Assembly (NCBI GenBank): GCA_951230915.1
Contig: OX579633.1
Location: 49,180,029 to 49,244,028 of the forward strand
DNA: 64,000 bases
Direction of reading: 5' to 3'
Origin: Antitrichia curtipendula
Taxonomy: Eukaryota > Streptophyta > Bryopsida > Hypnales > Leucodontaceae
Shown here: positions 1,316-61,032 of the stretch, piece after piece
How the letters are laid out: each line of letters begins with the position of its first letter
Position numbering within the stretch: position 1 is the first letter of the stretch
The notes under the pieces: model-generated
The model's database searches: none
What the model was told of the DNA's origin: nothing
The model's input: the letters and a program-made list of their open reading frames with translations, nothing else
Position numbers and translations under genes: made by a program

Positions 1316-2233
1316 TTATTCCTTTAAGTTCTTTAACTATGTTTTCACCCAAAACACTCTAAAAGTACCATTTCTAACACAAGTACCAAATTTTGGAAAA
1401 AAATATTTTTGGACACATGTAACCATACAATCTTGTAGTATACTTACTTGAGAACATGTGGAAAAATTTCAAAAATTTCCACCACGTGGATTGCAAGATA
1501 TAAGCTTTCAAATTCACTAAAATCATTTCTTTGGCCCTACGAAAAAACGGGCAGCTCTATTTTACAAGCTCACATTTGAATGAAAAAATTGTCCAAAATG
1601 GTGGTGCTTCTTTAAATTCATATTTTAAAGCAAGTTGTGTATATGCTTGAAAATTTTCAAATCATTTGGAGTTGTACAACATATAGGAAAAAAATAGTAA
1701 GCAAAAAGAAGAAGAAAATGATTCAAAATACTAAATTGTTGAGAATTTGGTTATGGAATTGAAAAATGCCAATGCCAATGGTTGCAATGCTATTATAAAC
1801 AATCTACATCAGATGACTTTATTTTTTTCAAATAATATTGAAAATTGAGTATAATAAAGGACTTCAAAGTTTATTTTAGAGTAGAAAATCTATAATTGCC
1901 CACAAACTAAATTCCTCATAAATTTTGACTCATTAATCAAAATGGAATGATTCAAAGCTTTTCACGTATATATAAATCTCTAAAATCAATTTCATTTTTT
2001 TTTAAAGTGCTGTTTTAAAACTGCCCGAGCTGCCCATTTACAAAAGAAAGTAACACATTAGGCCATAATTTTTTTGAATCATATTTCCAAATGTTGTGAA
2101 AATTTAGTGCACATGAAAGATACTCCTTATCCACATGAAAGTTTGGACTAGAAACATGAAAATCTCTAGTCACATGTACCTGCCCAAAATTGCTATGGTA
2201 CCAAATTTAGCAGGCTGGATTTTTAGAAGTTAA
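1316..2233 (+). mobile_element. TTAA MITE, family A, copy A1 (degenerate, L to R)
   Basis: This is a non-coding repeat about 918 bp long, closely following the complete copy at 18760-19702. The left end is decayed (TTATTCCTTTAAG for TTAACCCCTAAAG), followed by the L-end text ACTATGTTTTCACC. The right end is TTTTAGAAGTTAA for CCTTTAGGGGTTAA. Internal landmarks are in the expected order: ATCTTGTAGTA, GGATTGCAAGATAT, GTCCAAAATGGTGG, CTGCCCGAGCTGCCC and TGCCCAAAATTGCTATG. No coding capacity is evident. The decay of both ends suggests an old insertion. Confidence 0.75.
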
Positions 2234-3090
2234 CAAATGTAAAGTCCCTATATCAGTTGTTTTTAATCTTTTAATGAAATTTGATTATAATAATTCCTTT
2301 AAACTAAATATTATCTGCATCATGCTATGGAATTGCACTACAATTAATATATGCACACCCATTTCTCTGTGAAACATATATTTTTTCCTAGTTATTTAGC
2401 ATATAATTATTTTGACATATAATATCATCTAGTTGATAGCTTGTTTTAAATTAAGAAGTTGGCATGTAATGACTATGAGAAGACCATATAATACCTCATT
2501 TTTAATTTAGATTTTTCTCTTATACTCCTTATTAATTTTTATGACAATTAATTTTTAAAGAGTACTGATTTTTTAAATGTAATTCTTCTTTCATAAAACT
2601 ATGAACACGTATATTCTTTTTTATGGTGACAAAAGACCCCCCTTTTTTCCTGTGGTCTTCAATGTGTTAAATTTGTATTAGCAGTTGTTCATTTGTTTCA
2701 AATTCAATAAATTCTACCCTTGTAATTGAAATTTAAAAAAACTTTAGACCTCATCTTCAAGGCTTCAGTTTTCAAGATCACCTCAGTTGGTCTAACAATT
2801 GCTGAAATTCAAGGTCGTGGTACTAAAAAAATCCCAAAAAAACATTCCTTAATGCATAAGAGTAATATGCCATATGTCACTGCTATAAGTATGACTGCTT
2901 GACTTGTGTTAAATTGGTATTTATCAGAATTGTCTTTTCTTTTATTGACTCTGTGTGAGCGAAATGCTTGAATAATTTGTATCGCATGAGTTCAAAATTT
3001 ATAAAAGTACAAATACAAAAAACTCTTTCAGATTTATAACTTTCTATTTATACTACATACACCTCCACCTTCATCACTGTAAAGTCCATA
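2234..3090. other. AT-rich intergenic, nothing recognised
   Basis: Low-complexity AT-rich sequence with poly-A/T runs. I see no open frame of note and no repeat shared with the rest of the window. Confidence 0.6.
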
Positions 3091-3324
3091 TTAACCCCTA
3101 GAGGACCAAACACCATTTTTTGGCAACATAGCAATTTGGGGCAAATTACTATGAACAAAGTTAGTTAGTTTTTTTATTTTGAAAATTTTACACCAGATAT
3201 ATCCAAGGAGTAGCTTTAAGGCCCAACAATTTTTATAACTTTTCACTACATGGTTAAAAAAATATTGCATGCTATCTAGTTTTTGTTACTCGGCATGCAC
3301 TCCGGACAGCTCCAAAAAGTCAAA

Positions 3325-5204
3325 TGTAAGACACCACAGTGGCTTGCAAATTAGAATGAGAGAAATTGTAGACAATTTAGGTGAAATTGCAAGTTACAAA
3401 CTATTAGTTGGATGGATTTAAGCAATAGTTATAAACTAATGAATTTTCCAATAGATAGGAATGAAAATTTTAGAACAATGGTGTGAATTTTCAAAGATGT
3501 GATCATGAAAAAAGAATATCCTAATAAAGAGAAAATCCTAGGAAAAAAATAGGACTTTAAAATCAAAGAGACATTAATTAAGTAAACACACCCTGACTTT
3601 GAAATGGACCCTCTCTAGTCCTTATTCCATCCATTGACAACCCTTAATTATGCAACACCATGCACTAGGAGAAATTGGCAGTCTATTTTAGAACTAGTTA
3701 CTCTCCATTTTAGAGCTCCCTACATGATTGTTTGAAAAAGAAATGAAGATCACCTACCATAGAAGAAATGAAAACCAAGACTAGAAGACACGAAAACCAA
3801 GACTAAAAGAAATGAAGACCAAGAAAAGAACAAGGAAGATGAAGGCGAATGGTAGATGGAGGAGAGTAGGGTTTGGAAACCTTCTCTCTTTCCCTTTCTT
3901 GACTCTCATGCTTCTCTCTTCTTTCCTCTCTTCTTGCACTTGGATTTGGAAGTCTTGAACATATATTAGAGGAGGAGAATGAACAAGAGGTCTAGGGGAC
4001 ATGTTAGAAATGAGTATCAACCTAGAAAATTTGCCGAGTACATTGAGCTCAATCATTGCCACAAATTTGGAAGTTTGGGTTGAAGTTAGAGTTAGAAGAT
4101 GGAGCCTAAATTAGGAGCAACAACTTCAGTGGGTAAGATCAAGAAGACCACAAAGATTTTGAAGCTCAAACTTGTAGGGATGGTGCGCCTACAAGCTAGT
4201 TTCCAAAGAATTTAGGCTCGCTTCATTTGGAACAAGGACAAGGCAGTGGTGGTTGTTTTAGTCACAAAGGATCTACTACCACCTTTATTTTGAGTAGCAA
4301 CTTTGAGAAAAGAGATTAGAAGAACAACAACAATTTTGAAAGTTATTTTTAGTGATCTAGTGATTAATCAAATTGATTTTTCAACAAAACCAGTTTCATG
4401 TCAAATGGACCTACAAAGAGGCGATAGTGATTGATTTAGTCATAGAGGGTTTGTTGCCATGAAAATTTTGACCGTCAATTTTGAGGAAGAAGATTAGAAG
4501 AACCACATGGATTTTGAATCTTTTTTTTTGTGGTCTGGTTTCTAGTCAAGTCAAGATTTTAGCAAGCCTAAATTTATATCAATTGGATACGGTATGAAGC
4601 AGTGGTGGACATTTTAGCAAGGAAAGGCCACACCGGTTTGGTACTCTCGTTCTCCCCAACTCTCTTGATGTTATGAATGGTGAATCTTAGCCATTAGTTA
4701 GCAATTGGGGAAGAGAGGAAGATGTTTGCTACCATGACCCTTGAGTATTGGGAATTTGATGCTAGTTTAGGGTTCCCACTTAAAAACTCAAGGTAGTTCA
4801 CTGTTTTGATAAATAACTTGAGGATTTAAAGATGCATTGAATTTATCAAGGTAACAACCACTTGAAGTGACCTCCTTGAGCTACCTTTAATCTCAAATGC
4901 TTTAAGTGACCATGAATGAATTGGTAAGCTTCATTGATTGTCAAATTGAATCTTTCCTTGTTGAGGCTACATTGGCATGTTTCCTTGTTTTTGTTGTCTT
5001 GGTGAATGAGTAGAAATCCAATAGAAGTAGTTGTTTTCCTAATGGAATGAATATGGTTGAAATAGAATATGTAGTTAGTGTAAAAGAGTCCACTAGGTAT
5101 GAATGTCAATTAAACCTTGAGGGGTATATGATTGGGATGCCTATAACATGAGTAGTATTGGTGTATGAGCTCCATGGAGATTTAAGGAGTTGATGTAATT
5201 TATT
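3325..5204. mobile_element. Unclassified 1.9-kb insertion splitting the left arm of A2
   Basis: The boundaries are inferred from where family-A sequence stops (about 3324) and resumes (about 5205). I found no convincing terminal repeats or target duplication, so its class is unknown. It contains the 178-bp tandem array at 4142-4670 and short open frames on the minus strand (4846-5109, 5106-5375) that match nothing I recognise. A transposon or an older segmental insertion are both possible. Confidence 0.4.
4142..4670. repeat. Degenerate tandem repeat, three units of about 176-178 bp
   Basis: Units start at 4142, 4318 and 4496. Each begins AGAAGAMCMACA followed by GATTTTGAA or AATTTTGAA. Each carries a CAGTGGTGG-like or GATAGTGATTG segment followed by TTTTAGTCACAAAGG-like text about 110 bases in. 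By eye the units are strongly diverged from one another. They do not form a continuous reading frame. Confidence 0.55.
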
Positions 5205-5738
5205 GGTTGAATTTGAAATTGGTTCTAAAGATTTATTTACACGTAAAAAAATTTGAATAATTCCATTTTGATTAATGAAATGAAAGTTATGAAGAATTCT
5301 AGTTTGTGGATAAGAATGGAATCTAGAGACTCCATACCTATCTGCAAACTGGAATGCCTCATCACTTTCATTCATTAATCAAAATGGAATTATTCAAAGT
5401 TTTTCATGTGTAAATAAATCTTTAGAACTAATTTCAAATTTTTATTTAATGAAAATATATATTCTTAAAGAATTTTTTGAGCTGCCCGGTTGCCTACCAA
5501 GTAACAAAAAATACATATCATGCAATAACTTTTTAACCACGGAGTTAAAAATTATAAAAATTGTTGGATCTTAAAGCTACTCTTTGGGCACATGCAGTGT
5601 AAAAAATTTTAAGAAAAAAATAAAAACTCCTTTCATAAAGAGCTATCCAAAATTGCTATGTTGCCAAAAAAAGAGTGTTTGGTTCTTTAGTGGTTAAGTC
5701 TCTTTTATTTGGTTATTTTTTCAAACAAATTATAGTAA

Positions 5739-5744
<6 letters not shown>

Positions 5745-7373: not shown

Positions 7374-7836
7374 TTAACCCCTTAGCGCTCTAACGTCTAT
7401 TTTTTGGACAATGAATAGATTGAAATTCACATTTTTTTCTCACTACTGCTTGGATGGAAGTCATTCTAATTTGTGGAGATACTTTATCAAGTTGTTGTCC
7501 TATCTAATGTTTGGATTTGGTATTATTAGAGTACATATTGTTCTAAAATTAGAAATGTGGAAGTATGTCAAGTGGTTGAACAAGTCAAAATTTCTTTGAT
7601 TATAATTAAAATTGGATTTGCAAAAATGAGGTCATAGATTTTAAAAACTCAAAATTTTCAAAAAATCATCATGTTGAGGGAATCTAACCATATGGATGGA
7701 ATCTAAAATTCAAAATATACAATTTTTGTTCATCCATCAATTTCAAAGTCTTCTTTTAAAATAGTACTTTATAATGATTTTTCTCAAATTGTCAATTTTG
7801 GAGAACACTCTGACATACAGAGTGTTAAGGGGTTAC
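7374..7836 (+). mobile_element. TTAA MITE, family B, copy B1
   Basis: A 463-bp element starting TTAACCCCTTAGCGCTCT and ending AGAGTGTTAAGGGGTTAC, so the inverted repeats extend about 17 bp. The left flank tetranucleotide is TTAA and the right one TTAC. A second copy in reverse orientation lies at 16978-17555. The element contains a 62-codon open frame (7411-7599, plus strand) whose translation is similar to a 69-codon frame in the other copy. No known transposase domain is visible. Confidence 0.75.
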
Positions 7837-11448: not shown

Positions 11449-12364
11449 TTAACCCCTCAAGGATCAACATGGAATTTTTGGCAACATAGGAATTTTGGTC
11501 AAGTTTACATATTTTTGGTTGAATCGGGGGACAAGGAATATATTTCATATGCACTAAATTTCACAACATTTGGAAATATGAATCAAAAGTTATGGCCTAA
11601 TATGTTATTTTTTTCTTGACCAAGTAGTCCGAACTGACAACAAAAAATTACTTTTTTCAAAAATAAAATTTTTGAATTTGGTTTCCAAGATTTATATGTA
11701 CGCAAAAAGCTTTAAGTCATTCCATTTTGATTAATGAGTCAAAAACTATGAGAAGTTTTAGTTTGAGGAATGTTATAGATTTCCTACTCTAAAAAATAAA
11801 TTTTGAAGTCCTTTATTTAACTCAATTTTCAATATTATTTGAAAAAAATAAAACCATAGGATGTAGATTGTTTATTATAACATTGCAACCATTGGGATTG
11901 GCATTTTTCAATTCCATAACCAAATTTTTAACAATTTTGTATTTTGAATCATTCTCTACTTCTTTCTACTTACTATTTTTTTTCCTATATATTTATACAA
12001 TTCCAAACGATTTGAAATTTTTGAAGAATGTAGCACACTTACCTTGAAGTATGAATCCAAAGAAGCACCACCATTTGGGATAATTTTTTCATAGAAAAGT
12101 GAGCTAACCTTGTGAAGTGCAGCTGCCTTGATTTTTGCAAGGCCAAAAAAATGATTTCAGTGAATTTGAATGCTTATATCTTGCAATCCATGTGGTGTAA
12201 ATTTCTGAAATTTTTACCACATGTTCTCAAGTCAGCATACTTCAAGATCCCATGGTTACATGTGTCCAAAAAAGTGTTTTTTTCAAAAATTTGGTACTAG
12301 TACTAGAAATGACAATTTTGGAGCGATTTTGGTGAAAACGTAGTCATGGAACTTAAGGGGTTAA
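11449..12364 (-). mobile_element. TTAA MITE, family A, copy A3 (R to L)
   Basis: A 916-bp element with TTAACCCCTCAAGGATC at the left and GGAACTTAAGGGGTTAA at the right. It lies in reverse orientation relative to the copy at 18760. TTAA is preserved on both sides. The R-end subtype (CATGGAATTTTTGGCAACA, TATTTTTGGTTGAA, AAAAGTTATGGCC) is shared with 47896 and 53565 but differs from the R end of 18760, so at least two subfamilies exist. No coding capacity. Confidence 0.85.
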
Positions 12365-12646: not shown

Positions 12647-13576
12647 TTAACCCCTAAACGCCCAAATTGCATTTTTTTTTGGCAACATAGTGATTTTGGG
12701 CAGCTCACTACAAGTGGAATTTTTTTTTGAAATTTGAAATTTTCACATAATATGTGGACAAGGTTTTTCTTTAAGGCCCAACAATTTTCATAACTTTTGA
12801 CTACATGGTTAAGAAGTTATTGTATGGTATGTAATTTTCTTTGAATTGTGGGCAACTTGGGCAACTCAAAAAATTCTTTAAAAGTCACTTTTTTCATAAA
12901 CAAAAATTTGAAATTGATTTTATAGATTTATATATACCTGGAAAGCTTTGAAACATTCCATTTTGATTGATGAGTCAAAAGTTATGAGGAGTTTTAGTTT
13001 GCGGGCAATTATAAATATTCTAATCTAAAATAAATTTTGAAGTCCTTTATTTAATTGAATTTGAAAAAAAATTGAAACCAACAAAAATTGAAACCATAGG
13101 ATGTAGATTGTTTATTACAACATTACATCCATTGAAATTGTCATTTTCCAATTTCATAACTAGATTCTCAACAATCAGGTATTTTGAATCATTCTCTACT
13201 TCTTTCTACTTACTATTTTTTTTCCTATATGTTGTACAATTCCAAATGATGTAAAAAATTTCAAGCATGTAGCCAACTTGCCTTGAAGTATGAATCCAAA
13301 GAAGCACCACCATTTTGGACAATTTTTTCATAGAAAAGTGAGCTTGTGAAGTGCAACTACCCAATTTTTCGTGAATTCAAATGCTCATATCTTGCAATTG
13401 ACTTGGTGGAAATTTCTAAAAAAATTTCCACATTTTCTCAAGTCAGTATACTACAAGACCCTACAGTTACATGTGTCCAAATTTTAATTTTTTTCTCCAA
13501 AATTTGGTACGTGTATTAGAAATGGCACTTTTGGAGTATTTTGGTGAAATCATTGTCAAAAACATTGATGCATTAA
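12647..13576 (-). mobile_element. TTAA MITE, family A, copy A4 (R to L)
   Basis: Begins TTAACCCCTAAACGCCC and has the R-end blocks GGCAACATAGTGATTTTGGG and GGCCCAACAATTTTCATAAC. It runs through to the L-end text GGAGTATTTTGGTGAAA. The right terminus is decayed (ATTGATGCATTAA) but still ends in TTAA. Only about 280 bp separates it from A3, in the same orientation. Confidence 0.8.
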
Positions 13577-13922
13577 TTGACATTAGAATAAATCTGACCC
13601 TTGCAAAGGGCCGTGAACTGTTCATTTTCAGCCCCCCGCAGTGCAAATACAAAAATTCCAGAAAAAATATTTAAGAAATAGCTGATCTGTGGTGGCAACT
13701 TAAAATAAAAAACAATAATCATTTTTTCTCTAATTGCACCGTTGCCATCCAAAACTTGCAGCTTCTTTGGGGCCTGAAATTTTTTTAATGAATTCTTTTG
13801 CTGTGGAGTTCATTTTCAGTGTGCTCCTTGAAGTTGTTAATTTTCTACTGACTTATAAAAACTCAGCAGTTTATTTTTTTAAAACCTAGATAAAAAAATG
13901 GCAAACATGTTCTCAGCTGGTC
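13577..13922. other. Intergenic between TTAA and mariner-type elements
   Basis: No gene. CAGCTTCTTTGGGGCCTGAAA (about 13760) loosely recalls the edge of the family D copy at 22765, but the match is too short to call. Confidence 0.4.
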
Positions 13923-13924
13923 TA

Positions 13925-14440
13925 AGGTGGGTACACCCAAAAACGCCACTTTTTGCTACTGAGCCTAGTTACTACTATTAGACTGGTCAAATTTTCATAT
14001 ATTCTTGCTGGCAAGTGAAAGGAGGTTCCAACGCACCAGAGAACGGGGCATTTGGACACCATATGCAAAAGTTATTAAGAGTCAAAGTTTGTTTCTGAAA
14101 GCGCTCCATCCAAATAGGTACATACCTGATTTTGGAAATGTACACAACCTGTAGATGGCACTTTAAGGTCAGGTGCCATTTTTGGCCGGGGTGAACTGAC
14201 CCCCTCGCTCGTACCCCTGGGAAAACCCTGAAATTTTTTATTTTCCATGCATGAATTTTTTTGCAAATTCTGAATTCTTATTTGCAATCAGAGGCCCCAA
14301 ATTAGCTAGAGGGGTCCTAGAAAATAGATTTTACACGACACAAAATAGGGGGCTTTTTTTTATGTGCACCCCTGGATGGACTTTGGCAGTACGAGCGAGG
14401 GGGTCAGTTCACCCCGGCCCCATTTTGGGGGTGCCTACCT
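13925..14440 (+). mobile_element. TA-flanked mariner-type MITE, copy 1, interrupted by a hAT MITE
   Basis: The inverted termini are AGGTGGGTACACCCAAAA and, read inward from the right end, AGGTAGGCACCCCCAAAA. TA lies on both sides (13923-13924 and 14441-14442). The nearly identical uninterrupted 271-bp copy at 46663-46933, in the opposite orientation, defines its borders. A 236-bp hAT-type MITE (14184-14419) sits inside. A TA duplication with short inverted repeats and no coding region is the Tc1/mariner MITE pattern. Confidence 0.75.
14184..14419 (+). mobile_element. hAT-type MITE, copy 1 (nested)
   Basis: The ends are perfect inverted repeats of about 31 bp, starting GGCCGGGGTGAACTGACCCC and reaching CCTCGCTCGTAC. 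The flanks are CCATTTTT on the left and CCATTTTG on the right, an 8-bp target duplication with one mismatch. Eight-bp duplications are typical of the hAT superfamily. The uninterrupted host at 46663-46933 confirms the insertion site. No coding region. Confidence 0.85.
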
Positions 14441-14442
14441 TA

Positions 14443-16977: not shown

Positions 16978-17555
16978 TTAACTACTAAACGTCTAGAGTC
17001 TTTTCCAAAATCCACAATTTAAAAAAAATCTTCATAAAATATTATTTGGAAGAATATTTTAGAATTCATATACAAATAAAAGTTCTAGATTAAGAATTTT
17101 AGATTCCAGTTTTATGGTTAGATTCACCAATGCTCTATTGCTATCATCAATATTTTTGCTTTTTCATTTTGAAAGGAAAATTTCAAAATTCCTTCAAAAT
17201 TTGATTACAAGCAAAATATTATCATTTTTGAGTGCAATTTGTTGCAATGGAATTGAAATGAGAGTCTCTTCACATGGTGTTTTTTAAAATTTGTGACCTC
17301 ATTTTTTCAAATTTAGTTTTGAACTAGAGTCAATGGAATTTGAACTTGGTCAAATAGTTGATATACTTCCACATTTGTAATCTTAGAAAAATATGTACTC
17401 TAGTATCACCAAACCTGATCATTAGATAGGACAACAACTTCATAAAGTATCTCCACAAATTAAGATGACTTTCATCCAAGCAATAATGAGAATGAAATTT
17501 GAGTTTCAATCTGGTAGGCTTCCAGAAATTGAACATCAACCTGCTTTAGGGTTAA
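16978..17555 (-). mobile_element. TTAA MITE, family B, copy B2
   Basis: Reverse-orientation homologue of B1, about 578 bp. The left end is TTAACTACTAAACGTCT and the right end CTGCTTTAGGGTTAA, with TTAA on both sides. The minus-strand frame 17330-17539 translates to a peptide similar to that of B1 (shared H-Y-C-L-D, N-L-W-R-Y-F and K-L-L-S-Y-L-M). The copy is longer than B1, so it either has an insertion or B1 has a deletion. Confidence 0.7.
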
Positions 17556-17742
17556 ACTTTTTATATTGTGAAATATGATTCTTTAATTCCAAAACTTTAG
17601 ATAGAGTACTTAATTTCAAAGGAAGTTTATGTGGTTTTCAATAGTCTTGTGATTTGATGTTTTTAGAAATAATTCATGCGTATTGTTGTGTTTTCTTGCA
17701 ATAGATTATTTTTTTATGATTAAAGAATTTATTTATTAATGA

Positions 17743-18608
17743 TTAACCCCTAAAAAACTGTTTGTCCCCTTGGGGAACAATTTGGGACCGGATAGATTCC
17801 TATGACCTCAATTTTTAGTGAATTTTTTTGAAAATGTGTGATTTTGCGAGAGCTTTGTAGATATATAATTTTTACTTCAATTGGTGCCCAGGAGAAAAAG
17901 TTATGGCACAATAAGCCAAAAATGGAGGTCGACGGGCATCACAAAAAAGTCACAAAAAGTCTAAATAATTTTCCTAAAACTATATATTTTTGTCTACATT
18001 TGAAGCTTTGATTCATTCTATTTAAACTAATAATGAAAAACTTACGGACAATCTAAGCATCTTCTTGAAAAAACAATTTATAGGATTCATTTTTTAATGC
18101 AATTTCTACAATTTTCCCCCAAAAAATTGTTAGACAGGATTGTATTTGCTTGCTAGAACAATCTCACCGTTGGAATTATTGTATTTTAGTTTTTCCTTCA
18201 ATCTTGAACCTATTTGTTTTTAACAATTTTTTAATGAGTAAAAAATTAAGTTTTTTTTTCTTGAACTTTTTCCCTAGATTTTCAACTCAAGTATTCAACA
18301 TAAAAAATTAGAAAATCAAAATTGATAGTACAAAATATCTTTAAGTTGAAAAGATTCAAAGCCAAAATATCTAGTCAAGCAAGGTGCAAAAAAATTAGTT
18401 TTCTTCACTTTGGATGCACATATCTTGCAATCTATGTGGTCAAAGTTTCTGAAATTTCTTGCATACATTCTTCTACTAGTCTATTATAAGATCCTATGGT
18501 TAGATATGCAAAAAAGACAATATTTGAAGTTTTTTTGCTTTTTGCAATAGAAGTGGCGTTTTTTAGTACGTTTTAATGGAGAAAAGGCCTTGGTCATGTA
18601 GGGATTAA
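17743..18608 (+). mobile_element. TTAA MITE, family C, copy C1 (866 bp)
   Basis: Starts TTAACCCCTAAAAAACTG followed by the family-C signature TTGTCCCCTTGGGGAACAAT. Ends GGCCTTGGTCATGTAGGGATTAA. TTAA at both borders. This is the long form of family C. The internal AAAAAGTTATGGCACAAT and CTTGCAATCTATGTGG blocks are shared with C2-C5. No coding region. Confidence 0.8.
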
Positions 18609-18759: not shown

Positions 18760-19702
18760 TTAACCCCTAAAGGTTTTTGACTTTGTTTTCACCAAAACCG
18801 CTCCAGAACTGCCATTTCTAATACTAGTGCCAAATTTTAGAAAAAAAACATTTTTGGACACTTATAGACGTAGGATCTTGTAGTAAACTTGTTTAAGAAG
18901 ATGTGGAAAAAATTTCAGAATTTTCCACCGAGTGGATTGCAAGATAATAGCGTTTGAATTGACAAAAATCCTTTTTTTGTCCCTGCAAAAAAACGGGCAG
19001 CTGCCCTCCACAAGGTCACATTTGTATGAAAAAATGTCCAAAATGATGGTTACTCTTTGGATTTATTCTTCAAGGCAAGTTGGCTACATGCTTGAAAAAT
19101 TTCAGATCATTTGGAATTGTACAACATATAGGAAAAAAATAGTAAGTAGGAAGAGGTAGAGAATGATTCAAAGCACTAAATTGTCAAGAATTTATTTATG
19201 AAATTGAAAAATGCCAATCCCAACGATTGTAATGTTGTAATAAACAATCTACACCCAATGTTTTTGTTTTTTTTCAAAATTATTGAAAATCGAGTTAAAT
19301 AAAGGACTTCAAAGTTTATTTTAGAGTAGAGATTCCATAACTACCCTCAAACTAAAAATCCTCATAACTTTTGACTCATTGATCGGAATGGAATGATTAA
19401 AAGCCTCCCACGTACATATAAATCTAAAGAACCAATTTAAAAATTTAGTTTTTTTTAAAAGTGATTCTTAAAGAAGTTTTTTTTGCTGCCCCGGCTGCCC
19501 GTCGAACAATGAAAATGACATATCATGCAATAACTTTTTAACCATGTAGTCAAAAGTTACGAAAATTGTTGGACCTTAAAGCTACTCCTCGGGCACATCT
19601 TATGTGAAAATTTCAAAGAAAAAAAAGAAAAATTCCAGTCATAGTGAGCTGCCCAAAATCGCTATGTTGTCGAAAAACGATGTTTGGTCCTTTAGGGGTT
19701 AA
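18760..19702 (+). mobile_element. TTAA MITE, family A, copy A5: complete reference copy
   Basis: 943 bp with intact ends: TTAACCCCTAAAGG...CCTTTAGGGGTTAA, a perfect 14-bp inverted repeat including TTAA. L-end landmarks are TTGACTTTGTTTTCACCAAA, CTGCCATTTCTAATAC, GGATCTTGTAGTAAACTTG and GTGGATTGCAAGATA. Central landmarks are GGGCAGCTGCCC, ATGTCCAAAATGATGG and CATAACTTTTGACTCATTGA. R-end landmarks are GCTGCCCGTCGA, CCATGTAGTCAAAAGTTACG, GGACCTTAAAGCTACTCC, CGCTATGTTGTCGAAAAAC and GTTTGGTCC. No frame encodes a transposase, so it is non-autonomous. Confidence 0.9.
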
Positions 19703-22036: not shown

Positions 22037-22504
22037 TTAACTCCTAAAATCCCATCATCCCCTCAAAGGACAAAATGCATTTGGACAAGTTCTTCTTGGT
22101 CTCAATATTCATTAGGATTTTCAGACACATTTTGTGAAGATAGAAAAGCACATTAGCTCTCTAGGAGTATAATTTTGATTTCAATCGGTGTCTGGAAGAA
22201 AAAGTTGTGGCACTATAAGCTCAAATTTTAGTTAGGTGGAAAGAAAACGAGGCCTACCAAAATTATAATTATATGTGTATATATATAGTTTTAATTCATT
22301 CCATTTAGATTTGTTATGAGAGAGTTATGGATAATCTTGTTTTTTGGACAAGTAAAGCATCATTTTGAAAAAACAATTTGTAGGACTCATTTTTGAATTC
22401 AACTTTTATAAATTTTCAAAAAAGAAGCGTCAAAAGCTTAAGATCTCTTACTAAGAAAAATCTCACTATTGAAATTAGTGCATTTCAATTCTATCTCAAA
22501 GGTA

Positions 22505-23712
22505 TTAACTCCTAAAGATTTTTTACTATGTTTCTACTAAAAATGCTCCAAAACTGGCATTTCTAGTACAAGTACCAAATTTTAGAAAAATAAAATAAAA
22601 TTGGACACATATAACGGTAAAATCTTGTAGAATGCTCATTTGAAAAGATGTGGAAAAAATCTCAGAAATTTCCAGCATCTAAATTGCAAGATATTAGCAC
22701 TTGAAGCAGCAAAAATCTTTTTTTTGGCCATGTGAAAAAACAGATAGTTCAACTAAAGAATTTTCTGTCCTGGAAGGGGCCGCGAGTTTTGACCCCCCTG
22801 GGTGCAATTGCAGAAGCCCTCGAAGCTTTGATTTCGGGTGCTGATGTGGCACTATTCGTGCCACGTCAGCTCCACGTCAGACTTTCTAATTTTTAAATGT
22901 TTTTTAAATATTTTTAAAAAAATAATAATTAAAAATAATTTTTTTTTAAGGTTCCTGTAATTGCACCACAGGGGTGCCGAAAATCATCTGTTAACAGCCT
23001 CTTCGAGGGCTGAAACTTCTTGTAATGGCACTTCACAAGCTCACATTTCTATGAAAAAATGTCCAAAATGGTGGTGATTATTTGGATTCAATCTTCAAAG
23101 AAAGTTGGCTACATGCTTGAAAATTTTGAGATCATTTGAAATTGTAAAACATATAGGAAAAAATTAGTAAGCTAAAAAAAATAGAGGATGATTCAAAATA
23201 CTAAATTGTTGAGGTTTTGGTTATAGAATTGAAAAATGTCAATCCCAATGGTTGTAATGTTGTAATAAACAATCTACATCCTATGATTTTATTTTTTTCA
23301 AATAATGTTGAAAATTGAGGTAAATAATGAACTTCAATGTTTATTTTAAAGTAGATAATCCATAATTACTCTGCAAACTAAAACTCCTCATAACTTTTGA
23401 CTCATTGATCAAAATGGAATGATTTAAAGCTTTCCATGTATACCTAAATCTAAAGAACTAATTTCAATTTGGTTTATGAAAATAATGATATTTAAAGAAT
23501 TCTTTTGAGCTACCCAAGCTACCCGGATTTTAAAGAAAATTATATATCATACAATAATTTTTTAACGTAGTGAAAAAGTTATGAAATTTTCTGGGCCTTA
23601 AAGAAATACCTTTTCCATATGTTGTGTAAAAATTTCAAATAAATAAATAAAAATTCCATTTGTAGTGAGTTGCGCCAAATCACCATGTTGACAAAAAATG
23701 CAGTTTGGGCAT
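22505..23712 (+). mobile_element. TTAA MITE, family A, copy A7, nested in C2
   Basis: Begins TTAACTCCTAAAGATTTTTT followed by ACTATGTTTCTACTAAAAA. It proceeds through the usual L and central landmarks (TGTCCAAAATGGTGGTGATT at about 23060, CTCATAACTTTTGACTCA at about 23390). The R end has decayed (CACCATGTTGACAAAAAATG, GTTTGGGCATTGAC). A family D repeat interrupts it at 22765-23025, giving three levels of nesting. Confidence 0.75.
22765..23025 (-). mobile_element. Family D MITE-like repeat, copy D2, nested in A7
   Basis: This block is absent from other family A copies. It contains GATGTGGCACTATTCGTGCC and two CCACGTCAG motifs, then an AT-rich run. GAAGCCCTCGAAG near the left faces CTTCGAGGGCTGAAAC near the right, indicating inverted ends. 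The exact borders and target duplication are unclear. It is the reverse orientation of D1 and D3. Confidence 0.5.
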
Positions 23713-24119
23713 TGACTGTTTATTTTCCTTTAGTCTTGAACCTACTTTTGTTTAAGAAATTTTTAATGATTGAAAATTAAGTTGTTGTTTTTGAACTGTT
23801 TTTCCTAGACTCTCAACTCAATTCTTCAATATATAAAATTAGAAGTTTAAAATCATTAGTCCAAAAAGTTTAAGTTAAGAAGATTGAAAGCCAAAAATTT
23901 AAGTCGAGCAAGGTGCAAAATAAATTATTTTCTTTATTTTGAATGTAAATGTCTTGCAATCTAAGTGGTTAGAGTTTCACACATTTTTATGCTAGTCTAG
24001 TATAAATTTATATGGTTAGACACAGAATAAAAATAAAAAATTAATTTTTTTTCAATTTGCACTAGAAATGACAATTTTGAGTGGCTTTTGATGAAATAAA
24101 GGCCTTGGGACTTTAGGGA

Positions 24120-24708
24120 TTTACCCCTAAAGCCTTGCTTGTCCCCTCAAGGGACAATTTGGATCCGGGTAGGTTCCTGTTGTCTCAATTTGAAGTGAAA
24201 TTTTTTGAGATTTTTTGAGGTTGTGTAGCTCTGCAAGAGCTTTGTGGATATATAATTTTTATTTCAATAGGATGCCGGATGAAAAAGTTATGGCACAATG
24301 AGCAAGAAATGGAGATTGGCGGGCAGCCCAAAAGAATTTACAAAACGTCAAAATATATTTTTAAATTTTTTTTTCCTAAGACATTATGTTTTTACCTATA
24401 CGTGAAGCTTCGATTCATTCTATTTGGACTAGGAATGAGAAAGTTATGGACAATCTTAATTTTTTGGGCAATTTAAGCATCTTCTTGAAAAAAAACTTTT
24501 TGTTCAACTTTGAATGCTAATATCTTCCAATCCGTACGGTCAAATTTAATGAAATTTTCACTACATGATCTCAAACAAGTTAAGTACAAGATCCTACGAT
24601 TGAAAATCCCAAAAAAACAAAAAAATTGGTTTTCTTAAGTGAATACAACATAAGTGATAGTTTTGAGTGGTTTTTGGTAGAAAACACCCTTGGGGCTTTA
24701 GGGGTTAA
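24120..24708 (+). mobile_element. TTAA MITE, family C, copy C3 (short form)
   Basis: 589 bp: TTTACCCCTAAAGCCTTGC with GTCCCCTCAAGGGACAATTT at the left, CCTTGGGGCTTTAGGGGTTAA at the right. It abuts C2 directly; the four bases TTTA belong to both, so one element inserted into the target duplication of the other. It is very similar in length and text to C4, suggesting a more recently active subfamily. Confidence 0.88.
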
Positions 24709-28737: not shown

Positions 28738-28791
28738 TAAAATTATAATTTTAATACAATTCCTACGTTTTGACAATGAGCGGTCCAACTG

Positions 28792-33249: not shown

Positions 33250-34233
33250 TTAACCCCTCAACGCCCAAGGGGCTCAAAAGTAGCCTCTCATAGTTTAGAA
33301 GTCCAATTAAAAATGATGTAACTTTTGCATCCAATGTCCAAATTCAAAAAAACTTGTTGGGAAAGTTGCGCATACTCACCTAGTTTATGTAATAAAAATT
33401 TCAGATCAATTCAAGATGAATTGAGTTTGTGACAGCCGTTCAAAATTCACAGGTTCAATTTGATTTCAGCACATTGCATTGTCATGGCTGCAACTTCGGG
33501 GGCTTGTATCTCCTTCATCCAATGGTTGTTTTCAATAAAATTTGTTGTATTTTGTTCCTCTAGACATCTAATTAATGTGGTAAAATTTTCATGGCAAGCC
33601 AAGTTGTTTTGAATATTTGGGAGCAATTCGAAGTTCAAAACCCTAACATTTTTTGGTTAGTGTGAACTTCGGCGGCTTGTTACTTTTTCATACTCTGTCC
33701 GTTTTCAATTTTGTTTTTTTAGAAAGTTGCGCATACTTGTCTAGTTTTTGTGGCTAAAATTTTGTATCAATCAAAGAAGTATCGAGTGACTGAGAAGCAT
33801 TTTAGTAGAAGTAGGTTCAGCCTTAGATGTGTTTTTTGCACCCTTTTTGGCTATTTTCTTTTACATTTCAAAGTCATTTTACAAACACAATGATTTAATT
33901 TAATGAATTTTTTTTTCACCAGTGTGTGTATGTGTTGATTTCAAACCACTTTCTAGTGTAAAGTTTTTTCATTTGAGTAGGTTTAGAAATCAAATTTCAC
34001 CTCCAAATGTGTTTTAAAGAAAATTTCAGCATCTTTTTTCAACACTAAAACATTATAATCTTGCAATCTATGAGGTCAAATGACTCCAAACTTGATCCAC
34101 GTCATCTGTACAGTATGCACACTACAAGATTGTACGGTTGAGATTTTGATACCTTCATGACATGTAGACTTATAAGGCTTGAAAATCAATGATTTTTTTA
34201 AGCCCAAAACGGCCGTGGGCCTTGAGGGGTTAA
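33250..34233 (+). mobile_element. TTAA MITE, family E (984 bp)
   Basis: Left end TTAACCCCTCAACGCCCAAG, right end GGGCCTTGAGGGGTTAA, TTAA on both sides. The right subterminal region has the same two blocks as family A and C: CTACAAGATTGTACGGTTG about 100 bp in and TAATCTTGCAATCTATGAGG about 175 bp in. Internally two segments recur about 370 bp apart (GTTGCGCATACTCACCTAG and GTTGCGCATACTTGTCTAG; AACTTCGGGGGCTTGTA and AACTTCGGCGGCTTGTT). No coding region. Confidence 0.8.
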
Positions 34234-34314: not shown

Positions 34315-34904
34315 TTAACCCCTAAATCCCCGCTTGTCCCCTCGTGGGACAATTTGGGTCCGGGTAAGTTCCTATTGTCTCAATTTGAAGTGAAATTTTT
34401 TGAGATTTTTTGAGGTTGTGTAGCTTTGCAAGGGCTTTGTAAATATATAAAATTTGTTTCAATCGGATGCCGGATGAAAAAGTTATGGCACAATGAGCAA
34501 GAAATGGAGATTGGCGGGCAGCCCCCCAAAAATTACAAAATGTCAAAATAATTTTTTTTGAATTTTTTTCCTTAACAATTATGTTCTTACCTATACATGA
34601 AGCTTTGATTCATTCTATTTGGACTAGGGATGAGAAAGTTATGGACAATCTTAGTTTTCGGGCAATTTAAGCATCTTCTTGAAAAAAAACTTTTTGTTCA
34701 ACTTTGAATGCTAATATCTTCCAATCCTTACGGTCAAGTTTGATAAAAAAAAATTTACTACATGATCTCAGACAAGTTAAGTACAAGATCCTACGGTTGA
34801 ATTCCCCCCAAAACAAAAGAATTGATTTCTTTAAGTGAATACAACAGAAGTGGTAGTTTTGAGTGTTTTTTGGCAGAAAAAACCCTCGGGGTTTTAGGGG
34901 TTAA
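34315..34904 (+). mobile_element. TTAA MITE, family C, copy C4 (short form)
   Basis: 590 bp, TTAACCCCTAAATCCCCGC plus GTCCCCTCGTGGGACAATTT at the left and CCTCGGGGTTTTAGGGGTTAA at the right. TTAA at both borders. Nearly colinear with C3 over its whole length. Non-coding. Confidence 0.88.
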
Positions 34905-36204: not shown

Positions 36205-36490
36205 AAAACCAAACATGACTCAGAGGTACATTTTGCTTTCTTCAATGTAACAATTATGTACATTTCAGGAGGTGGTTGCTTTTGATGATCACAAATGACC
36301 ACTTTTTTCCCAACTTCAAATATTTCTAACTAATTCCACAAAGCCTCAAAAAATATGAAACGACTTGGGTTAGATGCTAATTCCACTTGTCTTTCAAGGA
36401 AAATTTACTGAAAAATATCCCAAGAAGTTCCACCTCCCCAAAAATCAATTCCAGCCCTTACATGGTCGGTTTATGGATCTACTACCTTAT
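36205..36490 (+). repeat. Family G dispersed repeat, copy G2
   Basis: Shares CAGAGGTACATTTTGCTTTC, TTCAATGTAACAATTATGTA, AATATGAAACGACTTGGG and TTAGATGCTAATTCCACTT with G3 (47648-47880), and the second half with G1 (9940-10170). Class unknown. Confidence 0.6.
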
Positions 36491-47895: not shown

Positions 47896-49767
47896 TTAAC
47901 CCCTAAAGGACCAACATGCGGTTTTGGGCAGTATAAAAAATTTGGGCAGGTACTTGTGACTGGAGATTTTCATATTTTTGGCTGAAATTTTAATAGAAGG
48001 TGGGCGCGAGGAGTACCTTTCATACGCACTAAATTTCATGACATTTGGAAATAGGAGTCAAAAGTTATGGCCAAATATGTTACTTTTTTTCCGTAACTGG
48101 GCAGTCCGGGCAGATCAGAAAAAATCACTTTTTTCAAAAACAACAATTTGAAATTGGTTTTCTAGAGTTATATATATGTGGAAAGCTTTGAATCATTCCA
48201 TTTTGACCAATGAATCAAAAGTTATGATGATGTTTAGTTTGCGGGCAGTTATAGATTCTCTACTTTGAAATAAACTTTGAAGTTGTTTATCCCCTAAAGG
48301 TTTTTACTATGTTTTCACCAAAAACGTTCCAAAACTGCCATTTCTAATACAAGTATCAAATTTTAGAAAAAAAACATTTTTGGACACATGTAACCATAGG
48401 ATCTTGTAGTAAACTTGTTAGAGAAGATGTCGAAAAAAATTCAGAATTTTCCACTGTGTAGATTGCATGATATTAGTGTTTGAATTGAGAAAAATCCTTT
48501 TTTTGTCCCTGCAAAAATCCGGGCAGCTGCACTTCACAAGGTCACATTTATATGAAAAAATGTCCAAAACGGTGGATACTCTTTGGATTCATTTTTGAAG
48601 TCAAGTTGGCTATATGCTTGAAAAATTTCAGATCATTTGGATTTATACAACATATAGGAAAAAAATAGTAAGTAGAAAGAAGTAGAAAATGATTCAAAAC
48701 ACTAAATTGTTAAGAATTTAATCATAGAATTACATAATGCCAATCCCAATGATTATAATGTTGTAAAGACCTATCTACACCCACTGTTTGTTTGTTTTTT
48801 CAAAAATATTGAAAATTGAGTAAAATAAAGGACTTCAAAGTTTATTTTAGAATAGAGATTACATAACTACCCTCAAACTAAGAATCCTCATAATTTTTGA
48901 CTCGTAGATCAAAATGGAATGATTCAAAGCTTCCCGCGTATATATAAATCCAAATAACCAATTTCAAATTTTAATTTTTTTAAAAAGTAATTTTTAAAGA
49001 TTTTTTTTTCGCTGCCCGGGCTGCCCGCCGAGCATTGAAAATCACTTATCATGCAATAACTTTTTACTCATGTAATCAAAAAGTTATGAAAATTGTTGGA
49101 CCTTAAAGCTACTCCTTGGGAGAATGTTGTGTGAAAATTTCAAAGAAAATAAAATAAAATCTTCGCTCGTAGTGAGCTGCCCCCAAAAGCTATGTTCTCA
49201 AAAAAGCATGTTCAATGCTTTAGGGGTTATTTAACTCAATTTTTAATTTTTTTTTAATTTTTTTTCGCATAGGATGTAGGTTGTTTATTACAAAATTACA
49301 ACCATTGGGATTTACATTTTTCAATTCCATAATTAAATTCTTACCAATTTAGTATTTTGGATCATTCTCTACTTCTTTCTACTTACTATTTTTTTTGTAT
49401 ATGTTGTACAACATCAAATGATTTGAAAATTTTTAAGCATGTAGAGAACTTGTTTAGGAAAAAGAATTCAAAGATGCACCACCATTTTGGATATTTTTTC
49501 ATGCAAATGTGACCTTGTGAAGTGCAGCTGCCCTATTTTTCGCAGGGACAAAAAAAGATTTTTGCCAATTCAAATGCTAATATCTTCCAATCCGCATGGT
49601 GGAAAATTCTGAAATTTTTTCGACATCTTCTAAAACTAGTTTACTATAAGATCCTACGGTTACATGTGTCAAAAAAGTTTTTTTTTCAAAAATTTGGTAC
49701 TTGTACTAAAAATGGCAGTTTTTGAGTGTTTTTGGTGAAAACATAGTCACAAAACTTTAGGGGTTAA
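47896..49767 (-). mobile_element. TTAA MITE, family A, copy A8 (R to L), split by A9
   Basis: Left end TTAACCCCTAAAGGACCAAC (R end, same subfamily as A3 and A10). Right end CAAAACTTTAGGGGTTAA (L end). TTAA at both borders. The sequence breaks at 48290 within GAAGT...TTTAT and resumes at 49226 with TTATTTAACTCAA, the family consensus, so the inserted A9 can be excised exactly. Without A9 it is about 933 bp. Confidence 0.88.
48291..49225 (+). mobile_element. TTAA MITE, family A, copy A9 (L to R), nested in A8
   Basis: 935 bp from CCCCTAAAGGTTTTTACTAT to CAATGCTTTAGGGG. Flanked by TTAT on both sides (48287-48290 and 49226-49229), a 4-bp duplication of the host family-A text CTTTATTTAAC. It is in opposite orientation to its host, so the pair forms a large inverted repeat. 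Interior colinear with A5. Confidence 0.9.
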
Positions 49768-50090: not shown

Positions 50091-50866
50091 CTAACCCCTA
50101 AAGCCCCAAGTCTTGTTTTCCATCAAAATAACACTCAAAACTAAAATTTCTATAGCAAAGACCAAAAAATGGTTAATTAATTTTTTTTTGCATATCTAAC
50201 CTTATGATCTTGTACTAGACTAATGCATGATTGTGTGGAAGAAATTTCACAAATTTTGACCGTATAGATTGCAAGATATTTGCATTTAAAGTGAGGGAAA
50301 AAAGCTTTTTTGTACTTTTTTTGACTTTGAACCTTTGTTACTTTTTTTTTTTGCTCTACTAATTTTGAATTTCTAAATTTATATGATAAAAATTTGAGTT
50401 GAGATTCTAGAAATTAAAAAACAAATTAGTTAGTTTTTATTAAATAGAAGTAGGTTCAAGATTGAAGGAAAATCTAAATTGTTAATAGCTCGAAGATGGA
50501 ATTGAAACACTAATCACAATAGTGAGATTATTCTAATAAGATATCTTTATATTGTGAAACCTTTCAGTTTTTTAAATGGAAAAATTGAGGTAAAAAATGA
50601 ATCCTACAAGTTTTTTCTTCAAGAAGACGCTTTGACTGTCTGAAAAACAAGATTGTCCATAATTTTCACATAACAAATCCAAATGGAGTAAATCACAGCT
50701 TTTAATGAACATAAAAATATAATCTATATACTAAAGAAATTGATTTTTTACTTCAGGTTTTGTTTTTTGAAATGTTTTTACAAAATCACGATAAATATTG
50801 AGACCGTAGGAACTTGCCCAAAATCCATTTTGTCCCCCAAAGGAACAATGGAACTTTAGGCATTAA
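50091..50866 (-). mobile_element. TTAA MITE, family C, copy C5
   Basis: Left end CTAACCCCTAAAGCCCCAAG, then GTTTTCCATCAAAATAACAC. Right end TTTGTCCCCCAAAGGAACAA then ACTTTAGGCATTAA. Reverse orientation relative to C1. About 776 bp. Confidence 0.78.
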
Positions 50867-53564: not shown

Positions 53565-54494
53565 TTAACCCCTAAAGGACTAGCATGTGTTTTTTAGCAC
53601 TATAGAAATTTTGGGCAGGTATGTGTGATTGGAGATTTGCATATTTTAGGCTGAAATTTTAATAGAAGGTGGAGACAAGGAATATCTTTCATATGCACTA
53701 AATTTCATGACATTTGGAAATATGAGTAAAAAATTATGGCCTAATATGGTGTTTTTTTTTGTAAATGGACAATCCGTGCAAATCAAAAAATCACTTTTTT
53801 CATAAACAAAAATTTGAAATTGGTTTTCTAGAGTAATATATATGTGGACAGCTATGAATCATTCCATTTTGACCAATGAGTCAAAAGATACGAGGAGTTT
53901 AAGTTTGCGGAATGTTATGGATTCTCTACTCTAAAATAAAATTTGAAGTCCTTTATTTTACTCAATTTTCAATATTATTTGAAAAAAACAAAACCATAGG
54001 ATGTAGATTGTTTATTACAACATTGCAACCATTGGGATTGGCATTTTTTAATTCCATAACTAAATTCTCGACAATTTTGTATTTTGAATCATTCTTTACT
54101 TTTATCTACTCACTATATTTTTCCTATATGTTGTACAATTCCAAATGATCTGAAATTTTTCAAGCATGTAGCAAACTTGTCTTGAAGAATGAATCCAAAG
54201 AAGCACCACCATTTTGAACATTTTTTCACACGATTGTGACCTTGTGAAGTGTAGCTGCCCGTTTTTTCACAGGGCTCAAGAAAGTTTTTTTGTCACTTCA
54301 AACACTAATATCTTGCAATCTACACGATGGAAATTTCTGAATTTTTTTCCACATCTTTTCAAACCAGCGTACTATAATATCCTTTGGTGACATGTATCCA
54401 AAAATACAAAAATTCTAAAATTTGGTGCTTGTACTAGAATTACAGTTTTGGAGTGTTTTTGGTGAAAGTATAGTCATGGTCCTTTAGGGTTTAA
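53565..54494 (-). mobile_element. TTAA MITE, family A, copy A10 (R to L)
   Basis: 930 bp, TTAACCCCTAAAGGACTAGC to GGTCCTTTAGGGTTTAA, TTAA on both sides. Same R-end subfamily as A3 and A8 (TATTTTAGGCTGAAATTTTA, AGGTGGAGACAAGGAATA). Non-coding. Confidence 0.85.
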
Positions 54495-58480: not shown

Positions 58481-59975
58481 TTTGCTCCATTGTTGTTGTC
58501 TTTCAAGCTTTTGTGAAGGTCTTTGGAGGTCTTTTCATGTGTTGTAGTCTCATATACTTGTTATTGGAGGTTCCTTTTGTACTAACTCATTGTATTTGAG
58601 TTCATTTTGTTTTTATACTAATCCTAGAGTCACAACCCACTGTACCTTGGCAATGCCGCTTTGGAAAGCCTCCTGTGTTTTGTGAGTGAGATTTTGTTCA
58701 CTAACTTGTTGCATTATTAAAGAAATGTTCCTTTGAAGAGCTTAGAAGGAGTGTAGGAAGTGGTTGGCATAAGAATCCTAGTGTAAGTTTTAGTTTGCAA
58801 TTTGTTTCAAGGAAGATTGACAAAAATTGCAACTTCTAGGTTGTTTTGAAGATAGTTGCAAAATCCTTGAGAGTAGCTGGAATTGTTGGATTTATGCTGA
58901 AATTTGGTGTGAGATCTTCTTAATCTCTTAATTTTAATTGTTAAGAACGTTAGAATTTGTTAGAGCTTTCTAAAAACAACAAAACTATCAAAAATTGACA
59001 AATTATGCTAAAGTTGTAAAGGTTTGAATTTTTGAAGTCAACGAGGGTTTCAGAAGCTATTTTGCAAGCAATTGTTTATGTTTTCATAGCGTTAATAGCT
59101 TTTGACAAAAGATAAAAGGTTGAAGGTTATCTAGCCATTAAGATAAGGTTGGGAGGAAATCTCAAGGATCCTAGTAGGCCATTAGATAGGGGTATTAGGT
59201 AGACATTGGATGGCTCAAGTAGGAGATAAGAAGGGCCTCATTAAAACTCACCTTAAGAAGTGTAGTGGTAGTGATTGTGAATTCAGTTAGGCCAATCAAT
59301 GATGTAAAAAAAAGAATGTAGAAGGAAAAGAAGAGTAGAGAAGGGAATGAAGAGGTAGGAGGAAAGATTAGAGAGTTAGGATAAAATAGGAGTTAGTGTA
59401 AACACCAAAAACTTGTATTGAAGACCAACTTTATAAAAACATCAAAAATTCAAGAAAGAAAATGGTAGATGGAGAAGAGTTTGAGGGGATTTTTGACAAT
59501 TATCATCAATGACATTGTACATAGAGTGGGCCATGAATACCTTACTCCTTCATTGGAATCTTACTTAGGGCCGAGGTCTAGGATTAATTCAGACCATTCA
59601 AACAAAGTGTCAAGCTAAGATTGAATTTAAAATCCAATAATAGAAGTTTAGAGGTTTTCAAAAATGTAAAATAAGTAGAAATTGGAGTTGAAACAAGAAA
59701 AATACATGCTTATGAAGTTTAGTGTGTTGATTGGATGAAAAGTAGCTAAAATCATCCACAGAGAACAAGATTAGAAAATCTAGATGTAGAAATAATTAAG
59801 ATTCCAAAAGTGAAATTATAACTTAATTTGGATAATAAGGTTAATACTTCGTAGTAAATAGTGGATGAAATTTGATAAGCTGATTAGCGTTCAAACTTCA
59901 TTTATTGATAACTTTTACAAGGAAAGGTCAATTTGGAAGTAAGATAGCATTTTAGAAAGGTCAAGAAAAATTCTT
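58481..59975. other. Intergenic, no gene recognised
   Basis: T-rich up to about 58700, then mixed AT-rich sequence. No coding region is supported. Confidence 0.4.
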
Positions 59976-60514
59976 TAACCCCTAAGCACTCAAACAACCA
60001 TTTTTTGGTTGTTGCTCAACTTTGGGCAGAATTTTCGGGGCAAAAAAAGCTTTTTTCAAAAAAAAAAAAAATTTCAAAATCTTGGATTGTCTTTCAATAT
60101 TTATATTCAAAACAAAGATCACTATGGTCAAACAAAAATTATTAGAGAAATAGCACAAAGTGTTTAGAATTGGCTAATGTTGAAAAATTTACTATTTTGG
60201 AAAAGTGTTGGTGTTCTCATTTCTAGATCTTATGCATTTTTTTACAAATCAATAGAAACCACAATTTTAACCAATAAAGAAAATTCAAATCCTAAGTGTA
60301 GAAATTGTATTTTTGATAAACATTTGAAGCTATATCTTCAAAATTCATTTGAAGAGAATCTAAAAATAATTTTATAATTTTGACCCTACAGATACTTTCT
60401 ACTTTTTATACTTCACATTATCTTTTTTTGTTGCAAACTTCAAAAAAGTTATAGAACTTATATTTTATAACACATTTGTGTTTTGTCCGGACCCCTTGGG
60501 CTTTTAGGGGTTAA
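59976..60514 (+). mobile_element. TTAA MITE, family F (539 bp)
   Basis: Left end TTAACCCCTAAGCACTC, right end CTTGGGCTTTTAGGGGTTAA, TTAA on both sides. The interior shares no long block with families A-E that I could see, apart from a TTTTGGTTGTTGC/GGGCAGA-like left subterminus. An open frame at 60177-60377 (plus) has no known domain. Confidence 0.75.
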
Positions 60515-60794
60515 GGAATAAATGTTAAAAATCTAAATATAATAATTGACCAAAAATAGTTCAATTCCTTAAGTAATCAAGGATTAGTAAAGCAAATTAG
60601 GATAAAAATTATCAAGTAAGGATTTAGATTTTGAATTGGATAGAAGAAACTTAGAGAAGTACATAACTATTTTTAACTTAGGAACATACTCAAAATCTTG
60701 GAAGTTAATGAAGGATGAAGTTTAGACTAAAAAACAGATGAAGTTAGATAAAACCATCCATTCAGGGCCAAATTTGATCTTTAGGAAGTTAACC

Positions 60795-61032
60795 TTAACC
60801 CTTTATGTATTAAGAATTCATGATTTTAAGTTGCAGACTTTGATTAATTATATTGTAGAAATATAATGGAAACGGAAAATTTTATTATATCATTTGCTTA
60901 AGTGAAGAATACTGTATGCATTGGTTTAAATAAACAATTATTTAAATTTTAAAAAATGTCCACATAAACTCTTCAACATTGCTTAAAAAAATGTGAGATC
61001 CAATTTGGGCTTCCTAGACATTAAAGGGTTAA
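60795..61032. mobile_element. TTAA MITE, family H (238 bp)
   Basis: TTAACCCTTTATGTATTAAG at the left and ACATTAAAGGGTTAA at the right, so the inverted repeat is TTAACCCTTTAATGT with one gap. TTAA on both sides. It differs from families A-F in having CCCTTT rather than CCCCTAAAG. Non-coding. Confidence 0.65.

What the first reader, a model, noticed from the sequence alone, without database searches (positions are those of the whole stretch)
1316..61032. A piggyBac-like TTAA MITE superfamily in a land-plant genome
About 20 elements in at least six families (A: 1316, 3091, 11449, 12647, 18760, 20110, 22505, 47896, 48291, 53565, 55172; B: 7374, 16978; C: 17743, 22037, 24120, 34315, 50091, 50881; E: 33250; F: 59976; H: 60795) share the end TTAACCC(C/T) with its inverse at the other side. 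Preserved borders are TTAA or one mismatch away. TTAA targets plus CCC-starting inverted repeats define the piggyBac superfamily; to my knowledge it is not an established component of land-plant genomes. Internal sequences differ between families, so conserved ends imply selection for transposase recognition. The piggyBac link is an inference from ends only.
Basis: partly seen in the sequence, partly recalled or inferred. Interest (0 to 1): 0.85.

Follow-up and report, generated by a model that had tools for sequence, protein, structure and literature searches.

The report
Moss transposons inserted at TTAA
A stretch of moss DNA is packed with old, gene-less jumping elements that insert at the four letters TTAA and copy them on both sides, which is the habit of the piggyBac group best known from animals, but no piggyBac enzyme gene has yet been found to prove the link.

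Summary
Twenty elements have both borders read. Their shared end is TTAACCCCTAAAG. Of 40 borders, 31 are TTAA and 9 are one base off. A control not selected on TTAA agrees: 12 of 16 CCCCTAAA words follow TTAA and the other 4 follow a one-base variant.

A nested insertion shows that the four bases are a target duplication. Element 48287-49230 lies between two TTAT words, and none of 9 paralogous sites has the extra copy. This argues against a 2- or 3-bp duplication, on one clear site.

The host is a moss by its DRB2-like gene. Elements are old: seven A copies are 76-87% identical pairwise.

Corrections: A and C, and weakly E, share internal sequence. Sites 20110 and 55172 are not complete elements. 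45259-46108 was missed.

Best explanation: non-autonomous TTAA-targeting cut-and-paste elements, most likely mobilised by a piggyBac-type transposase. The ends fit piggyBac better than Kolobok, though their fourth base is C. No transposase was found in a partial search, and the genome search did not complete. PiggyBac is already reported in land plants (PMC4438587), so this is a new member of a known kind.

The parts
18760..19702 (+). A element, 943 bp, reference copy, TTAA on both sides
48287..49230 (+). A element nested in another A element, TTAT on both sides (border words included)
   Evidence: none of 9 paralogous sites has the extra TTAT copy
47896..49767 (-). outer A element interrupted by 48287-49230, TTAA on both sides
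53565..54494 (-). A element, TTAA on both sides
11449..12364 (-). A element, TTAA on both sides
12647..13576 (-). A element, TTAA on both sides, one decayed inverted repeat; right end set by hand
1316..2233 (+). A element, TTAT / TTAA, decayed ends
22505..23715 (+). A element (1211 bp, with about 280 bp extra inside) within C element 22037, TTAA / TTGA; right end set by hand
   Evidence: paralogue at 50092 has one TTAA there
3091..5697 (.). 2.6-kb element whose two ends are both A right ends in inverted orientation, TTAA on both sides, 1.9 kb of DNA not matching A inside
17743..18608 (+). C element, TTAA on both sides
22037..24123 (+). C element interrupted by A22505; right border TTTA shared with the next element
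24120..24708 (+). C element abutting the right border of 22037 (TTTA / TTAA)
34315..34904 (+). C element, 89% identical to 24120-24708, TTAA on both sides
50091..50866 (-). C element, CTAA / TTAA
50881..51347 (-). C element with a good TTAACCCCTAAAG end at 50881; other end uncertain (not among the 20)
7374..7836 (+). B element, TTAA / TTAC
16978..17556 (-). B element, 83% identical to 7374 over 232 bp, TTAA / TAAA (TTAA if shifted by one base)
33250..34233 (+). E element, TTAA on both sides, single copy, weak internal similarity to A and C
59975..60514 (+). F element, TTAA on both sides, single copy
   Evidence: ends only
60795..61032 (+). H element, TTAA on both sides, single copy
   Evidence: ends only
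   Evidence: ends only

Best explanation
These are non-autonomous cut-and-paste transposons of a moss. Each is typically a 0.24-1 kb element with a 9-bp inverted end, CCCCTAAAG...CTTTAGGGG. It was inserted into a TTAA, or rarely a one-base variant, with duplication of those four bases. Shown: the ends, the TTAA preference, a 4-bp duplication at one nested site and a consistent second site, repeated copies in both orientations (A, B, C), and the absence of a long reading frame in the A consensus. Inferred: a transposase supplied from elsewhere in the genome cut at the CCCC ends and joined them to TTAA, as piggyBac transposases do; the source is most likely a piggyBac-superfamily element of the same moss.
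For: Border and end table of 20 elements and flank test. Control not selected on TTAA, 12 of 16 plus four one-base variants. Nested site: TTAT on both sides of the element and no extra copy at 9 of 9 paralogous sites. Second nested site with one TTAA in the paralogue. Two elements abut through one shared TTTA, as expected if one landed in the border duplication of the other. In print: piggyBac elements have a CC[C/T]T terminal motif and TTAA duplications, and coral piggyBac-type MITEs include ends beginning CCCCT (PMC2872659, passages); [quoted passage not shown] read on either strand this covers our TTTA, CTAA, TTGA, TTAC and TAAA, but not TTAT); Kolobok also uses TTAA but ends in 5'-RR (PMC9587614, passages).
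Against: No transposase or remnant was found, but the search was partial: Pfam on 10 frames (8 of the 117 frames of 60 aa or more counted, and two of the DRB gene) gave no transposase family, and a six-frame scan of the window with recalled piggyBac motifs gave two isolated weak matches. The whole genome could not be searched (10 unanswered genome-search runs). The fourth base of the end is C (36 of 40), where the published motifs that I saw have T or A (CC[C/T]T; CCCTC, CCCTT, CCCAT), coral MITEs with CCCCT excepted. The terminal repeat (9 bp clean) is shorter than the 12-19 bp quoted in PMC2872659. No significant subterminal repeat was found in the A consensus. The 4-bp duplication rests on one clear nested site. 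A transposase of another superfamily with the same target taste is not excluded.
Confidence: 0.67

Rival explanations
1. Non-autonomous elements of another superfamily with 4-bp TTAA-type targets, such as Kolobok or Sola, or of an undescribed plant lineage.
For: Kolobok also makes TTAA duplications (PMC9587614). No transposase was identified here. The fourth end base C is unusual for piggyBac.
Against: Kolobok termini are 5'-RR according to PMC9587614; here they are 5'-CC. That passage lists plants only as chlorophytes and rhodophytes for Kolobok. Sola2 is listed as animal-only in PMC4438587; the ends of Sola were not found in the passages read.
Confidence: 0.23
2. Elements with a 2-bp TA (Tc1/mariner, end ACCCC) or 3-bp TTA/TAA (Harbinger) duplication whose next bases merely look like TTAA.
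For: TTAA contains TA, TTA and TAA, so symmetric TTAA borders alone cannot separate these; at the nested site a TA model survives if the end base mutated.
Against: At the nested site TTAT stands on both sides of the element and none of 9 paralogues has the extra copy; a TA or TTA model needs an end mutation that happens to match the target. The outermost T of TTAA is conserved in 37 of 40 ends, which a TA model does not explain.
Confidence: 0.07
3. TTAA is part of the inverted repeat and the true duplication lies outside it or is absent.
For: TTAA is as conserved as the CCCC next to it.
Against: Flanks outside TTAA match no better than shuffled pairings for lengths 1-10 (all p above 0.2). The nested element carries TTAT, the word of its own target.
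Confidence: 0.03

Closest known systems
piggyBac-type MITEs (for example coral CMITE families, PMC2872659, passages)
   Same: TTAA duplications, CCC-starting short inverted ends (CCCCT occurs among the coral families), non-coding, several families sharing end motifs
   Different: Moss host; elements up to about 0.9-1 kb instead of about 100 bp for the coral families seen; no autonomous partner found
Autonomous piggyBac superfamily (IFP2 and relatives)
   Same: TTAA target, CC-starting termini, rare non-TTAA targets
   Different: No DDE_Tnp_1_7 transposase found here; fourth end base C; clean inverted repeat 9 bp; no subterminal repeat shown
Kolobok superfamily
   Same: 4-bp TTAA duplication
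   Different: Kolobok ends are 5'-RR, here 5'-CC
Plant Tourist and Stowaway MITEs (recalled)
   Same: Short non-coding elements with inverted ends in plants
   Different: TWA or TA duplications and other end sequences

Membership tests
piggyBac superfamily | 4-bp TTAA target duplication | tested here: met
   31 of 40 borders TTAA, 9 one base off; one clear nested site (TTAT) and one consistent nested site (TTAA)
piggyBac superfamily | Termini beginning CC, usually CC[C/T]T | tested here: inconclusive
   C in 31, 33, 36 and 36 of 40 ends at bases 1-4: CCC is met, but base 4 is C instead of T; coral piggyBac-type MITEs with CCCCT exist
piggyBac superfamily | DDE_Tnp_1_7 (PF13843) transposase in the element or in an autonomous relative with the same ends | tested here: inconclusive
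   None in 10 frames given to Pfam or by motif scan of the window; genome search unanswered
piggyBac superfamily | Precise excision restoring TTAA | not testable with these tools
   needs alleles, related genomes or an excision assay
Kolobok | TTAA duplication with 5'-RR termini | tested here: not met
   Termini are 5'-CC; rule from PMC9587614
PIF/Harbinger MITE (Tourist) | 3-bp TWA duplication | tested here: not met
   Four bases duplicated at the one clear nested site, barring an end mutation that matches the target
Tc1/mariner MITE (Stowaway) | 2-bp TA duplication | tested here: not met
   Four bases duplicated at the one clear nested site, barring an end mutation that matches the target
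MITE (non-autonomous DNA element) | Multiple copies, inverted ends, target duplication, no transposase | tested here: met
   A, B and C are repeated; longest stop-to-stop frame in the A consensus 93 aa; A elements of 0.92-0.94 kb are long for a MITE; E, F, H and N45259 are single copies here
Sola | 4-bp duplication with Sola termini and transposase | not tested
   Sola termini were not found in the passages read

The most novel reading that the evidence does not exclude
Mosses carry, or carried, a land-plant lineage of piggyBac transposons that drove repeated bursts of large (0.5-1 kb) TTAA MITEs, including a composite form with two identical right ends.
Probability: 0.43. Interest if true: 0.6.

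Novelty: new member of a known kind. Interest (0 to 1): 0.42.

Why it matters
Plant repeat annotation usually sorts MITEs into TA, TWA and longer-duplication groups (recalled), so a TTAA group can be missed. A dense set in a moss, with evidence for a 4-bp duplication, gives a concrete end sequence with which to look for a bryophyte piggyBac transposase, and bears on how far this superfamily reaches in green plants.

Tried and rejected
Duplications outside TTAA: tested for 1-10 bases, no excess over shuffled pairings. Subterminal repeats in the A consensus: direct score reached by 47 of 500 shuffles, inverted by 326 of 500, so neither is claimed. Coding capacity: longest stop-to-stop frame in the A consensus 93 aa. 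Pfam on 10 frames: only dsRNA-binding families of the DRB frame (dsrm, DND1_DSRM) passed their cut-offs, and the other matches were below them. Those 10 were 8 of the 117 frames of 60 aa or more counted outside the A/C elements and the DRB region, plus two DRB frames; the other 109 and the frames inside the masked elements were not searched. The interior of 3091-5697 was translated in six frames, and no piggyBac motif pattern matched there (patterns recalled). Copies elsewhere: one exact 21-mer of the A family had no match in viral contigs or in the prokaryote collection, which says little for a moss element. Rfam: no match at gathering scores.

Literature: 10 searches. In the titles and abstracts shown (several lists were capped: 20 of 24, 20 of 41, 10 of 73 and 25 of 644), I recognised no report of TTAA MITEs in a moss; the library is open-access only. 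The superfamily review by Bouallegue et al. is not held, so its plant records could not be read. I ran no further search on an insect piggyBac transposase, because I judged that the 120 hits listed would nearly all be animal.

Full report
Host. The window holds a gene with two double-stranded-RNA-binding domains, with frames at 39422-40195 and 40296-41276 (Pfam dsrm on the first; frames; that the second frame belongs to the same gene is inferred). The best three of the 120 hits listed (of 1034) are unnamed environmental proteins at 78-79% identity; the nearest named ones are DRB2-like proteins of the moss Physcomitrium patens (76-77%), ahead of Sphagnum (74% and less) and vascular plants. In a tree of 32 sequences it lies near the Physcomitrium rows, but with weak support: no starred set holds it, and two fern rows fall in the same open group. 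I take the host to be a moss, probably not Sphagnum. The window is 33% G+C.

Is the pattern real? TTAACCCCT occurs 13 times and AGGGGTTAA 7 times against about 0.3 and 0.4 expected. From self-comparison (the first two lists are capped) and end scans I fixed both borders of 20 elements. Pooled over 40 ends, conservation starts sharply at TTAA and stays high to about position 13, TTAACCCCTAAAG, while the 8 bases outside are near background. Thirty-one borders are TTAA and nine differ by one base; two of the nine are one physical site shared by abutting elements. Because most ends were found with a pattern containing TTAA, I also took all 16 CCCCTAAA words on both strands: 12 follow TTAA and the others follow TTTA, TTAT, CTAA and ATAA. 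Looser words give 18 of 36 (CCCCTNA), 20 of 76 (CCCCT) and 20 of 225 (CCCC), against about 1% background. Three items were left out of the 20: 20110 and 55172 (A fragments without proper ends) and 50881 (right end uncertain). The right ends of A12647 and A22505 were set by hand.

Target duplication. A symmetric TTAA on both sides could be a duplicated target, part of the inverted repeat, or a shorter duplication with symmetric neighbours. The flanks outside TTAA show no excess of matches. The nested element 48287-49230 bears on the rest: it interrupts the outer A element 47896-49767 and is flanked by TTAT on both sides. At the same place none of the 9 other A copies examined has the extra four bases: 7 are collinear (in one, 1316, a base change makes a second, overlapping TTAT), one (20134) has a short insertion just before the site, and one (22505) is more diverged and was read by eye from the printed stretch. 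The simplest reading is that the four bases came from the target and were doubled; a 2-bp TA duplication would need an end mutation that happens to match the target. At a second site, element 22505-23715 interrupts C element 22037-24123 with TTAA / TTGA, and the paralogue at 50092 has one TTAA there. That right border is decayed, the match beyond it has a 2-base gap, and the other paralogue (17743) has a deletion, so this site is only consistent (one search prints the left word on both lines). Elements 22037 and 24120 abut through one shared TTTA.

Anatomy. Six A elements without a large insertion are 916-944 bp. Seven aligned copies are 76-87% identical to each other, and their consensus has no stop-to-stop frame longer than 93 aa. 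Uninterrupted C elements are 0.59-0.87 kb. A and C share internal stretches of about 90-200 bp at 64-69% identity, so they are probably one lineage; E matches A and C only weakly (64-67% over 82-102 bp, and 22 of 23 bases with C17743, E-values 3e-4 to 9e-4). B, F, H and N45259 matched no other family at 1e-3. The 2.6-kb element 3091-5697 has two A right ends in inverted orientation with TTAA on both sides and 1.9 kb of other DNA inside.

Mechanism. Shown: insertion at TTAA-like targets, evidence for a 4-bp duplication, and CC-starting inverted ends; repeated A, B and C copies, with no coding capacity in the A consensus. Inferred: mobilisation in trans by a transposase that recognises CCCCTAAAG. 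By published descriptions, piggyBac has CC[C/T]T ends with TTAA (PMC2872659, passages) and tolerates variant targets (PMC10813416, passages), while Kolobok has 5'-RR ends (PMC9587614, passages). Against this, the fourth base here is C, as in some coral piggyBac-type MITEs but not in the quoted motif, and no transposase was found in a partial search. PiggyBac is the best fit among the superfamilies compared; I put it at about 0.67.

Novelty. A survey of 257 species lists PiggyBac among the DNA superfamilies present in all groups studied, land plants included (PMC4438587, passages), a 2021 paper says piggyBac-like elements occur in plants (PMC8086355, passages), and a longan paper mentions PiggyBac repeats (PMC12946498, passage). 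The survey and the longan paper are annotation-level statements. In the ten searches (several lists capped) I recognised no paper describing TTAA MITEs in a moss. The finding is a new member of a known kind with modest taxonomic interest, which would rise if a moss transposase with these ends were found.

Noticed in passing
3091-5697: Element with two inverted copies of the A right end as its termini and 1.9 kb of DNA not matching A inside; possible composite or foldback derivative.
   Followed up: partly
13922-14185 and 46673-46936: Two inverted copies at 95% identity, more alike than any TTAA copies compared; identity not determined.
   Followed up: no
35373-37820: Inverted repeat with arms of about 480 bp at 70% identity; no TTAACCC end seen at its left arm.
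   Followed up: partly
28784-28966: Two copies of 97 bp at 95% identity, 86 bp apart start to start, just after a 364-bp imperfect palindrome at 28395-28758.
   Followed up: no
39422-41276: DRB2-like double-stranded-RNA-binding protein gene of moss type.
   Followed up: yes
17743-18608 and 33250-34233, with 18760-19702: A subterminal stretch shared by A and C and weakly by E (22 of 23 bases between C17743 and E33250); could be a common transposase-binding region or just descent.
   Followed up: no
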